DNA of 64,000 nucleotides from Zeus faber (lineage: Eukaryota; Chordata; Actinopteri; Zeiformes; Zeidae), in contig OY482854.1 in the NCBI GenBank assembly GCA_960531495.1, positions 33,790,293 through 33,854,292 of the forward strand, in the 5' to 3' direction. Positions 35,501 to 41,500 of this stretch are shown piece after piece (the first letter of the stretch is position 1; each line of letters opens with the position of its first letter). Below the pieces are notes generated by a model. The model made no database searches, was not told the DNA's origin, and saw only the letters and a list, made by a program, of their open reading frames with translations. Made by a program: the position numbers and the translations under genes.

Positions 35501-38500
35501 TCAGGAAGGCGAACTGGCAGTCGTTTACGGTGGAAACAGAAAGAAGAACTGCTGGTCTCATGGACCCAGAAGCAGAAGACGTGGATGCTGCATACATTGC
35601 CTACTGTGAAGTCCTCCTAAGGGCAGCAAAGCACAACATCCCACGTGGCTACAATAAAAACTATATCCCGGGCTGGGATGAGGAGTGCAGCTGCCTGTTG
35701 CGCCAACACCAGCAGGCGATCACCAGGGAAGAAATGGACGCAACAGCAACAACCCTACTGCAGAAGCTGGATGACACCCGAAGGGCTAGGTGGACGGAAG
35801 TAGCGGAATCCATCGACTTCACCCACTCCAGCCGGAAGGCGTGGCAGACCATCAACTTGCTCTCAGGGAGAAAAACAACACCTCGTAGGTGTCCAGTGAC
35901 TGCAGATGCTATTGCTTCCCAGCTCCTGAAAAATGGTCGCTTCCCTGATGCGGACAAAAACTTCGCACGACTGACATCGTGTGAGGTATCATCCCTCTCC
36001 AGAGCAGCCAGCGCTGATGCTAATCTCTCAGGAGACTTCACAGCAGCCGAGCTAAAGGCAGCAATTAAAAAACTGAAGCTGGGCAAATCACCAGGTCGAG
36101 ACAATATCCACCCAGAGTTTGTTATGCACCAAAGTGAAAGAACATCTCAATGGCTACGCACATTCTTCTCATCATGCTTCCGGAGGTCCAAGCTCCCGAA
36201 GACCTGGCGCCGTGCTTCCATCATAGCCTTGCCAAAGCCGAACAAACCCGCCGAAGACCCGAAGTCCTACAGGCCCATATCCCTGCTCTGTGTCCCGTAC
36301 AAGATTCTGGAGAGGCTGATCCACAGCCGCATTGAGCCAGTGGTGGACCCTCAACTCCCACCGGAACAAGCCGGCTTCCGCAGAGGCAGGTCAACGGTGG
36401 ACCAGGTAACGCTACTCACCCAGGACATCGAGGACAGCTTCCAAGATAATGAGAAAGCTGGAGTAGTATTCCTGGACCTGACAGCCGCTTATGACACCGT
36501 GTGGCACCGTGGACTACACCTGAAACTGTTGAGAACAATCCCGGACCGGCACATGGTGAGATTTATCATGGAGATGCTATCTAACCATAGCTTCATCCTA
36601 CAAACCAGCGATGGCCAGACCAGCAGGCTCAGAAGGCTGAAGAACGGTGTCCCGCAAGGCTCTGTCCTCTCACCAATGTTATTTAACATCTATATTCACG
36701 ACCTGCCAGACACAACATCCAAGAAGTACGGCTATGCGGACGACCTGGCCATCATGCTTCGATGCCCAACATGGAACACTATGGAAGAAGGCCTCAACCG
36801 AGACATGGGCATCCTGGCAGACTACCTCCAGAAGTGGCACCTTCAGCTCAGCATGGGCAAAACAGTGTCTGCAGCTTACCACCTCTACAACCGGGAGGCA
36901 AGAAGGGAACTGGACGTGCATGTTGGCAACATCCGCCTGGAGTTCCAGCAAGCCCCCAAGTACCTTGGCGTATGCTTGGACCGGACGCTGTCCTACAAGC
37001 AGCACCTGGATGAAGTGAAGGCCAAGACAACCGCAAGGGTCTCGCTCATCCGCCGCCTTGCAGGCTCGACTTGGGGAGCTTCCCCCCAGACCCTACGCAT
37101 ATCCACGCAAGCCCTGGTCCTACCCGTAGCGGAATACTGTGCCCCTGCCTGGAGCAGAAGTCCACATGCGAACAAGGTGGATACTGTCATCAACAGCGCC
37201 CTCCGGATAGTAACTGGTTGTCTGAAACCCACCCCTGTGTCCTACCTGCCAGTCCTAGCTGGTATCGCCCCACCCAGTCTCCGACGGGAAGCAGCTACCC
37301 TCGCCCTGGCAAGGAAAGCCCAGAAGAACGACTGGCACATCCTACACAAAGCCACAACAACACCGGCACCACCATGCAGGCTCAAGTCTCGCCATCCCTA
37401 CAACAAGGCAGCACAAGAGATGCTACAGTCGATCCCTGACGACTTGTCCAAGGACGCCTGGCTGGCAGCATCCTGGAGACAATCGTGGGAGTCAGCTGCG
37501 CCCTCCCGCATCCAACGATACATCCGGGACCCAGGAGGAGGTGTAAAAGGAGAAGACATGCCACGCCACCTATGGACCTCGCTGAACCGCCTGCGTACTG
37601 GCGTCGGGCGCTTCAAGTCCTCTCTAAAGAAGTGGGGCCTATCCGACAGTGCGTCATGCGAGTGTGGCGAACCTGAACAGACTGCCGAGCACATAATCAC
37701 CAGCTGCCCCCTATACAGCCCACCCTCAGAAGCTGGCCTTTTTGACCTAGGACTGGAGACGAGGGCGTGGCTATATGACACTGAGTTGGCCATCTGATGA
37801 TATACGAAAGAAGAAGAAGGCCGGTCAGAGTCAACCAAGGGCCGTATGTGGCTCGGGGGCTGTACAATGCCCAGGTCTGCCCTAGACCCTAACCCCCCTT
37901 TGCCCCTAACCCACCTAGACCCCTAGAACCTAACCCCCTCTCGCCCCTAACCCCACTAGACCCTAACCCCCCCTCCCGCCCCTAACCCCCCTAGACCCAT
38001 AGACCCTAACCCCCTTCGCCCCTAATCCCCCTGACCCCCTCTCGACCCTAACCCCCCTAGACCAGTGATTCCCAACCTATGGAGGGTATTGCAAGTAGGC
38101 CGCCAAATCATGGGCACACATCGATTTTATTGAAAAAAATGAAAAAAATAAATAAAAAATGTTAATTACAGAAACAACTTTCTCCCTTCCAGTAGATAGT
38201 CGGCCCCATGGATGATCTTCCAGTAGATAGTCGGCCCCATGGATGATCTTCCAGAGAGCAGTTCAGCTCCCATCTGTGGATTGCCGCTCCATGCCAGTGT
38301 ACCTGTTCTACAGTGTTGCACAGTCTATCACAGTGTTGTACAGTCTATCACAGCGATTCCCAACCTATGGGCAGCAGCCCAGTGGTGGGCCATGAGGGTA
38401 TTGCAAGTTGGCCGCCAAATCATGAGCAAAGCACATCGATTTTATTGAAAAAATTAATAAATTATTAATTACGAAAACATTTTTAAATGTAAAAATAATT

Positions 38501-41500
38501 AATCATTTCATGGTATTTTTTTCTTTAAAACCTTCAAAAATGCATCATCACTGATAGATAGTACGCCCTAACATAAGTTCCTATGTCCAAGCCGGACCAC
38601 GATCGACATGCACCTGTACGTTTTTAACTTGCGGTGACAATTAAAATGGATGGTTGGCAGCATCAGGAACACTGAAAAGGAAGGAAGACATTGGTACATC
38701 ATCCACAAGCGAAGTCCGCGGGACAGTCCCGCCTGTCAAACAAAAAGCAAAGGTTTGGAGAAAGTATTGCGCTGAATATTTATCATTGGGATTTCTTTGA
38801 GCAGGCACAGAAGACAAACCGTAACCGCTGTGTATAGTGTGTTCTGAGATTTTATCGAACGAAGCTCTGAAGCCATGTAAACTGCGCCATCACCTCAAGA
38901 CAAAACACCAACAGGACATTTCCAAGCCGCTTGAATTTTTCGATAATAACCTCAAGGAGTATCAGGGCAAGAAGAAAGTAATCGAAACGTCATGTAGGGG
39001 CACCGAGAACGCAAAGGCAGCAGAAGCATCCTATCGGGTTGCGCGACTCATAGCCAAGCTTGGTAAGCAATCAATCGGGGAGAATTAAATTTTCCCTGCC
39101 ACAAAAGTGAATGTGGGGGTGATGAGAGAGGTGAGAGAAGGTGTGCAAGCCAATCAACCTCATCTCATTGTCTGATAACTCAGTCAAACGCAGGATTGAG
39201 GAGATGGCAGAACAGCTGATAACGAGCGTACGAGCGTACGAGTCCCCCCCCACCCCGAGTCGTTTTTATGCCCTTCGACTGGATGAACCGACAGACCACA
39301 CAAATCTGTCAAACCTGCTTGCCTATGTAAGGTATGAAAACAATGGAGAGATAAAAGAGGAGTTCCTGTTTTGCAAATCTTTACCAACGCATTCAACTGC
39401 TGAGGCCATTTTTGATATTCTGAAAGTTTGAACTCGCACATGGCTTCAGTGATTTTGAGTGGCTGGCTGAATTGGGATACCTGGCTGACATTTTCAGCCA
39501 CTTAAATGGACTCAATCTCAGTCTCCAAGGAAAAGCAGTGACCATGTTCAATGTCCAGAATAAAATAGGAGCAACATAAGAAAAATGGAGATGTGGGCCA
39601 GGCGAGTTGACCGGTCAAACTTTGAGTCGTTTGAGAATCTGTCAGATTTTTTGACAAAGGAAGAAATGCGGCTTCCCGTCACTGTGATCAATCATGTCAA
39701 AGAGCACCTGCATGGTTTGAGACCATGCTGCACCAGTACTTCCCCATCCCAGATGTGCAGTGCAGCTGCATGGAAACCCCCTTTCGCCAGCCACAGTGAC
39801 GAGACCCTCGCAGGCCTGAGACAAAGACTGAGAACGACAATTTTGTGGATCTCTCCTGCGACAGGGCATTGAAACTGGCTTTCTCACAGAAGTACCTGAC
39901 AAAGTTTTGGCTTCATGTTGCTTCTGAGTATCCCGATCTGTCTGACAGAGCTGTGTGGTTTCTATGCCTTTCCCGATGACGTTTCTCTGTGAGAATGGCT
40001 TCTCAGTGCGGCGTCACTAGTCAGCGCAGCAGGCCGAGGCCCCGTGCTCCTGAAGGGAGGAGAGGGCAGTCTGTTGGCGCATGGTGGAAGGAGGCTGGTT
40101 GACCGTGCTGCCCAGGGAAACTCAGGTCCTCTAGAAGGTCACCTGTTAATTTGTTTTGGACATTTGTTCGTATAAGGTATAGGAACCCCGGGTCAGAGTC
40201 TGTATTTTTTGGTTTAGTAACTCTAGGTCAGAGTCTGTTTCAAGCATTTATCTTCATTTTTGTTCTCTGCTTGGTGGTGGTGGTGGTGGCGGCGGGGGGG
40301 GGGGGGGGGGGTAGGCTTCAGCCAGGAGTTCTTCCTGGCCACAGTGTGGTGTTGGGGGGTATGTGGTGGATGGGGTGGCTTAAGCAGCCACACCTGAGGT
40401 ACTTAAGCTCAGCCTGAGCTTGAGCCCTGCGTCATGACATGTTCCATCTGCTCCTGGCTAATTCCACCTAGCCTCATCTCTACAATAAACTGGTGTTATC
40501 AACCCCCCCCCCCCCCCCCCCCTCCCAGCCGTCTGTGTCCCCGGGGTGGAGGGCCCTGAACACGCAACTTGGATGTTTGGTGGCGAATCTGCCACAGTGC
40601 TGTTTGGCTCCCGTATTACTTCTGGTCGGATGTGGGCCGCCAACACTTTTGGGATTTTGAAGTGGGCCGCGAGTCTGAAAAGGTCGGGAACCGCTGCCCT
40701 AGACCCTAACCCCACTAGACCCTTAGACCCTCACCCCCCCTTGCCTCTAAACCCCTGGACCCTCACCCCCTCTCGCCCCTAACCCCCTCTAGACCCTAAC
40801 CCCCCTTCAACCCCCTAACCCACCTAGACCCCTTAATCCTGGTTTATGATTTTACATGCTGCACAAATGATGTCACCAGGCACTGGTGGGCGGAGGGGCG
40901 CACAGAGCTTTCCCTGGAAGAAATGCATTGGAATCGATGGGAGATCAGAATGTTGCTGTTTCATTTGAGACATATTGGACAAAACTGACCGGCAGCAGAA
41001 GTCAAATGCCAAATACTTTTGGACGCAAAGACAATATAGTATACGCAAACAGCTCCTTTTTGTCGGTTTAACCTCCAAGAACAGCGCCTCCTCCTCAGCA
41101 TAAACAAGCTAAAATGTCCTTCGTGCAGCCATGTTTTCTGTCGAGCGCTCTTCACCAACACCCAGCGCTCTCTGCAGGAGGGCGTGTGCCTCCGGTGAGG
41201 GCCCTGCACAAAAGCATTACAAGCCCTTTAGACCCCTAACCCCCTTACCCTCTAGACCCTGACACCCCTAAACCCTTAGACCCCCAGACGCCTTACCCCC
41301 TAGACCTCTAGACTCCTAGACCCTGACCCTCCTTCAACTCCTAAAGCCTTCTGAGTAGTCCTTCAGTCTGCAGCTCCATGACGATGACAATTACTGCATT
41401 TGTGTTTTGGCGTTTTTTTCAAATGCAATTCATATGAAGAGCAGTAGCTCCATCTGCTGGTTAGCAATTGCCATCACAATGGATTTGGTCTTTTTCACAG

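What the first reader, a model, noticed from the sequence alone, without database searches (positions are those of the whole stretch)
38063..38565. hAT in intron 11 carries an inverted piece of intron 8 of the same gene
The left end of this hAT has two termini (38063 and 38351). The 165 bp between them are an inverted, about 90 percent identical copy of arhgef37 intron 8 (25809-25975), including parts of two minisatellites that are local to intron 8. In intron 8 the same host sequence sits directly beside a 205-bp hAT end in inverted orientation. The simplest reading is that a hAT copy in intron 8 moved using an outer terminus and took neighbouring host DNA 12 kb downstream. A template switch during repair is the alternative.
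Basis: partly seen in the sequence, partly recalled or inferred. Interest (0 to 1): 0.82.

Follow-up and report, generated by a model that had tools for sequence, protein, structure and literature searches.

The report
Jumping gene carrying nearby intron DNA
A transposon in one intron of a gene holds a short backward copy of DNA from another intron of the same gene, most likely left by a repair that borrowed a related transposon copy as its template, which is a known kind of event with an unusual double end.

Summary
Window 38186-38350 is an inverted copy of 25822-25986 (155 of 165 identical). It sits between two same-orientation left ends of a hAT at 38063-40696. The 8-bp duplication CCCTAGAC flanks the OUTER tip and the right tip; the inner tip lacks it. 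In the source intron the same host DNA abuts a hAT left end that interrupts a 20-bp minisatellite, and the 31-bp minisatellite runs on past the copied part. The host DNA therefore looks native there. The match crosses the host-hAT junction except for 13 bp lost between CAGTG repeats.
Best reading: a break in the left end of the downstream hAT was repaired from the inverted hAT copy 12 kb upstream. Synthesis ran past the tip into host DNA and was end-joined to the other side (8 unassigned bases). This resembles the animal Pack-TIRs of Tan et al. 2021. A maize-type composite insertion remains possible. Other genome copies could not be examined: the genome search gave no answer in ten tries.

The parts
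38055..38062 (+). left target-site duplication CCCTAGAC next to the outer hAT tip
   Evidence: 0.9% of 174 x 133 flank pairs from the local minisatellite arrays share an 8-mer
38063..38176 (+). outer hAT left end, truncated; lacks about 24 bp of subterminal sequence present in the inner end
38177..38184 (+). 8 bases aligned to neither the hAT end nor the host source; inferred site of the end join
38185..38350 (-). captured host DNA, inverted copy of 25822-25987
38351..38565 (+). inner hAT left end with complete tip; its flank GTCTATCA does not match the right flank
38566..40680 (+). rest of the hAT as bounded by its tips, with broken frames; 39135-39428 is similar to three proteins, one labelled PF14291 and PF27073, two PF27073 only
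40681..40696 (-). right terminal inverted repeat CAGCGGTTCCCGACCT
40697..40704 (+). right target-site duplication CCCTAGAC
25612..25808 (-). source-intron hAT left-end remnant, inverted relative to the target hAT
25809..25816 (+). CTGTAGGG, inferred target-site duplication of the source hAT; only CTGTA (24111-24115) is left of the other copy
   Evidence: inference
25822..25987 (+). host DNA that was copied: end of the 20-bp array, about 60 bp outside both arrays, start of the 31-bp array
23953..24115 (+). 20-bp minisatellite, the part on the far side of the source hAT
24116..25603 (-). dispersed repeat (LINE-like by eye) standing where the body and right end of the source hAT would be; 24122-24984 recurs at 46333-47193, 83% over 882 columns

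Best explanation
A hAT inserted in the downstream intron (duplication CCCTAGAC), and a close relative inserted in the upstream intron in opposite orientation (inferred duplication CTGTAGGG). Later the downstream copy broke about 115-125 bp inside its left tip. The body-side broken end paired with the left end of the upstream copy and was extended outward, across the tip and about 180 bp into the host minisatellites. It was then freed and end-joined to the tip-side broken end, with 8 unassigned bases at the join. The product is: outer tip fragment, host insert, full inner left end, body, right tip. A 13-bp slip between CAGTG repeats removed the copied duplication, during synthesis or later. Shown: the anatomy, the duplication at outer and right tips, the nearly continuous copy of host plus hAT end. 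Inferred: the source duplication, the break, the pairing and their order.
For: Duplication on outer and right tips, not at the inner tip. Host DNA and hAT left end are colinear in one 381-column match. The junction copied is native to the source: the 20-bp array is on both sides of the source hAT (match to the unit 0.92 left and 0.81 right, next-best phases 0.36 and 0.40) and the 31-bp array runs about 80 bp past the copied part. CCCTAGAC and the inferred CTGTAGGG fit nnnTAnnn, given for Buster elements (passages of PMC3517528). The outer end stops at an internal hAT position and meets host DNA through 8 unassigned bases, as an end join would. Insert (10/165) and co-copied left end (17/185) do not differ in divergence, Fisher p 0.32. 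Tan et al. 2021, PMC8277862: 208 of 370 animal Pack-TIRs are hAT, 160 of 281 lie within 15 kb of their source, and gap filling is inferred for most single-copy cases (sections 7 and 8).
Against: If the two hATs were already different, the inner end should share source states against the outer end; 0 of 65 columns do (2 inner-only, 4 source-only). So the hATs were nearly identical then, or the outer end also came from the source, as rivals predict. An alignment over more of the ends gave 14 outer-only columns of 116 (4 inner-only, 6 source-only), mostly in an A-rich stretch that I judge misaligned. Outer-inner (3/68) and outer-source (4/65) are lower than 18% (binomial 0.0009 and 0.005), the median divergence from consensus of the elements in Tan et al. 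(18.3%), so the usual case in that study, an old element broken long after insertion, fits poorly; in the same study most of the cases within 15 kb lie under 5 kb, against 12 kb here. The duplication lies in an array that repeats the word CCCTAGAC (three times in the left array, once in the right). No outgroup, haplotype or genome copy was seen.
Confidence: 0.6

Rival explanations
1. Composite insertion by alternative transposition. The left tip from one hAT (or sister-chromatid copy) and the right tip from the other, both at the upstream intron, inserted 12 kb downstream into unreplicated DNA. Forks re-replicated inward from both tips, about 114 bp on one side and the whole hAT plus about 180 bp of flank on the other, then broke and were joined.
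For: Predicts the outer-tip duplication, the internal join, the host flank in its native order and near-identity of the three left ends. Such insertions, including ones without a tandem duplication, are described for maize Ac (Zhang et al. 2014, abstract, passages and section 9); that Ac is a hAT is recalled.
Against: Composite insertions I met in maize papers only. Alternative transposition itself also appears in the listing for rice, and 'hybrid element insertion' in Drosophila papers (listing). No tandem duplication of the 12-kb interval shows in the part of the window compared (20-32 kb against 32-48 kb), though solo insertions lack it too. It needs a very early stop on one side.
Confidence: 0.15
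2. One reading: a pre-existing double-ended hAT in the upstream intron moved by cut and paste using its outer left tip and carried the host DNA along.
For: The duplication at outer and right tips is what such a move would leave.
Against: No second left end or break in the 31-bp array near 25987 (tips listed); the donor still has the host DNA and left end.
Confidence: 0.1
3. The insert is part of a hAT subfamily with many double-ended copies, and the upstream intron holds a fragment of one of them.
For: Not excluded: no genome copies could be examined (ten unanswered calls, listed in Tried and rejected).
Against: In the upstream intron the 31-bp array runs about 80 bp past the matching part, and the 20-bp array lies on the far side of the hAT too. 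So the arrays look native there and the hAT looks like the intruder.
Confidence: 0.07

Closest known systems
Pack-TIR / Pack-hAT of animals (Tan et al. 2021, PMC8277862; abstract, passages, sections 7 and 8)
   Same: A hAT with intact outer ends and duplication holds non-transposon DNA from the same chromosome less than 15 kb away.
   Different: Here the template itself carries a hAT end in inverted orientation, so the copied stretch includes a host-hAT junction and leaves the element with two left tips. Divergence suggests capture while the hATs were young, unlike most cases in that study. Whether any of their 370 cases has two tips I could not see.
Composite Insertion from reversed Ac ends transposition (Zhang et al. 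2014, PMC4270019; abstract, passages, section 9)
   Same: Transposon tips and 8-bp duplication outside, flanking host DNA and a join inside, donor hAT and its flank still present upstream.
   Different: About 2.6 kb in all; the sizes I read there are 14.3 to 23.6 kb, plus one amplified band of about 5 kb. One side stopped inside the element. Not shown to arise in one transposition step.
Buster family of hAT (duplication consensus in PMC3517528, passages)
   Same: CCCTAGAC and the inferred CTGTAGGG have TA in the middle; one homologue of a body frame carries PF14291, which I recall as a hAT-associated domain.
   Different: No transposase tree was made; frames are broken.

Membership tests
hAT superfamily | 8-bp target-site duplication with short terminal inverted repeats | tested here: met
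   CCCTAGAC on both sides; CAGTGATTCCCAACCT / CAGCGGTTCCCGACCT
hAT superfamily | hAT transposase domains | tested here: inconclusive
   No Pfam family for the three body frames tried (one of them again); one frame is 60% identical to P0001, which carries PF14291 and PF27073
Buster family | duplication consensus nnnTAnnn | tested here: met
   CCCTAGAC; also the inferred CTGTAGGG, of which one copy is incomplete; consensus. One or two sites only, each with a 1 in 16 chance
Buster family | transposase groups with Buster in a tree | not tested
   broken frames, no tree made
Pack-TIR | non-transposon DNA of identifiable genomic source inside TIR ends | tested here: met
Pack-TIR by gap filling | single copy in the genome, and simple hAT at the orthologous site of an outgroup | not testable with these tools
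   The genome search unanswered in ten calls; no outgroup of this organism was at hand
Composite Insertion | duplication created by the same event that brought the insert | not testable with these tools
   needs haplotypes or outgroup

The most novel reading that the evidence does not exclude
The structure is a fossil composite insertion in an animal genome: hAT tips from two chromatids or copies jumped together into unreplicated DNA and re-replicated their own flank, a process described in maize.
Probability: 0.15. Interest if true: 0.65.

Novelty: new member of a known kind. Interest (0 to 1): 0.36.

Why it matters
It is an unusually readable case of how a DNA transposon picks up host DNA. 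Two minisatellites, a target-site duplication and a copied host-hAT junction fix the source and direction of copying. It also shows how repair between inverted transposon copies could give an element a second terminus and a captured intron piece, which might later move as a unit.

Tried and rejected
Inversion of the interval by recombination between inverted hAT copies: rejected, since the two exon-like frames I see between the sites (in 25910-26323 and 27512-27847) are on the + strand, like the frames on either side; this is by eye, and the list was cut. Independent nested insertion of a second hAT: rejected, no duplication at the inner tip and the host DNA beside it belongs to the other intron. 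Divergence as a test between capture and repair: not decisive. In one search the first 110 bases of the left end differed at 12/107, the rest at 5/78 and the insert at 10/165; neither comparison with the insert was significant (p 0.17 and 1.0). Register of the 20-bp array across the source insertion: I joined the flanks by overlapping CTGTA, which puts the units in register by construction; it shows that the same array is on both sides, but is no independent proof of the 8-bp duplication. Separate microhomology join of host DNA to the native tip at CAGTG: possible in sequence, but leaves unexplained why the copied piece ends 13 bp from the source hAT tip. Pfam gave nothing for the body frames. 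A scan of prokaryote genomes with P0001 found no relative, as expected; two exact DNA patterns in viral contigs found 0 stretches.

Papers: PMC8277862 abstract, passages, sections 7 and 8; PMC4270019 abstract, passages, section 9; PMC9910405, PMC3517528 and PMC8961557 passages only; all others listing only. Among the papers listed by searches I saw none, composite insertions apart, whose title or abstract start describes this double-tip structure; one search listed 8 of 704 papers and one search listed 6 of 11, so this is no claim that it is absent from print.

Full report
What is there. The target element runs from 38063 to 40696. Its outer left tip and its right tip are flanked by the same 8 bases, CCCTAGAC, at 38055-38062 and 40697-40704. 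The element sits in a minisatellite that repeats this word: three times in 37880-38062 and once in 40697-40836. Among 174 x 133 pairs of left and right positions in the arrays, 0.9% share an 8-mer, so the duplication is likely but not beyond doubt. The inner left tip at 38351 is preceded by GTCTATCA, which does not match the right flank.

The insert. 38186-38350 matches the reverse complement of 25822-25986 at 155 of 165 positions. The local alignment puts the first host base at 38185 and the last aligned hAT base of the outer end at 38176, which leaves 8 bases unassigned. The inverted match continues through the inner hAT left end, 25612-25987 against 38185-38542. At the host-hAT junction 13 bases of the source (25809-25821), including its inferred 8-bp duplication, are missing in the target. 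By direct reading they lie between two CAGTG words of the source; the target has one, now CAGCG. Smaller gaps lie inside the hAT end.

Which place is the source. In the upstream intron the 20-bp minisatellite lies on both sides of the hAT remnant and the repeat next to it: the flanks fit the unit at 0.92 and 0.81 in their best phase, with next-best phases at 0.36 and 0.40. I joined the flanks by overlapping CTGTA, so their common register is built in and is not separate evidence. Of the inferred duplication CTGTAGGG only CTGTA is left on the far side. The 31-bp array runs from 25918 to 26069, about 80 bp past the copied part. The host DNA therefore looks native upstream and copied downstream, not the reverse.

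Ages. Differences: insert against source 10/165; inner end against source 17/185; outer against inner 3/68; outer against source 4/65. The 95% intervals overlap. Over the part of the end where the outer copy also aligns, the pairwise count inner against source is 13/92. Over 65 three-way columns there are 0 outer-only, 2 inner-only and 4 source-only states. The wider alignment gave 14 outer-only, 4 inner-only and 6 source-only columns of 116, with 64 gap columns; I set it aside because its A-rich part is unreliable, and it would point to an older outer end. On the conservative columns the capture is about as old as the split between the hAT copies, which suggests that it dates from when the family was active.

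Mechanism. Pairing of the body-side broken end with the inverted hAT copy, synthesis past the tip, and one end join gives every part in order with two ordinary hAT insertions and one repair event. Cut-and-paste with an outer terminus needs another left end in the source intron, and the uninterrupted 31-bp array there gives no sign of it. Alternative transposition with re-replication, described for maize Ac, gives the same anatomy and cannot be excluded without an outgroup. Animal Pack-TIRs show that hATs often carry nearby host DNA and that most single-copy cases were read as gap filling. The present case differs from the typical one there in the distance (12 kb; most cases within 15 kb are under 5 kb), in the low divergence of the element and in a break near the tip. 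In that paper breaks near the ends are what repair after excision would give.

What is not known. The organism was not identified.

Noticed in passing
27887-37879: A possible second hAT-like insertion about 10 kb long, flanked by the same word CCCTAGAC (27879-27886, 37880-37887) in the same minisatellite, with ends CAGCGGTGGGCAAT and CAGACCTGGGCATT (right end reversed; 10 of 14 alike by eye; the local alignment of the ends found no more than a 7-bp match). It holds other repeats.
   Followed up: partly
34654-37797: An open frame of 1047 codons with endonuclease and reverse transcriptase domains, so a fairly intact LINE-type element.
   Followed up: partly
24116-25603: A dispersed repeat stands directly where the right part of the source hAT should be, with no target-site duplication that I could see, as if its insertion removed the hAT body; 24122-24984 recurs at 46333-47193 at 83%.
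   Followed up: partly
38186-38254: The 31-bp units in the insert are identical to each other and, by eye, share a variant (GTCGGCCCC) found in one unit of the source array, which suggests later doubling or an older array state.
   Followed up: no
41850-42990 (-): Remains of what I recall as a Tc1/mariner-type transposase, by eye from the frames.
   Followed up: no
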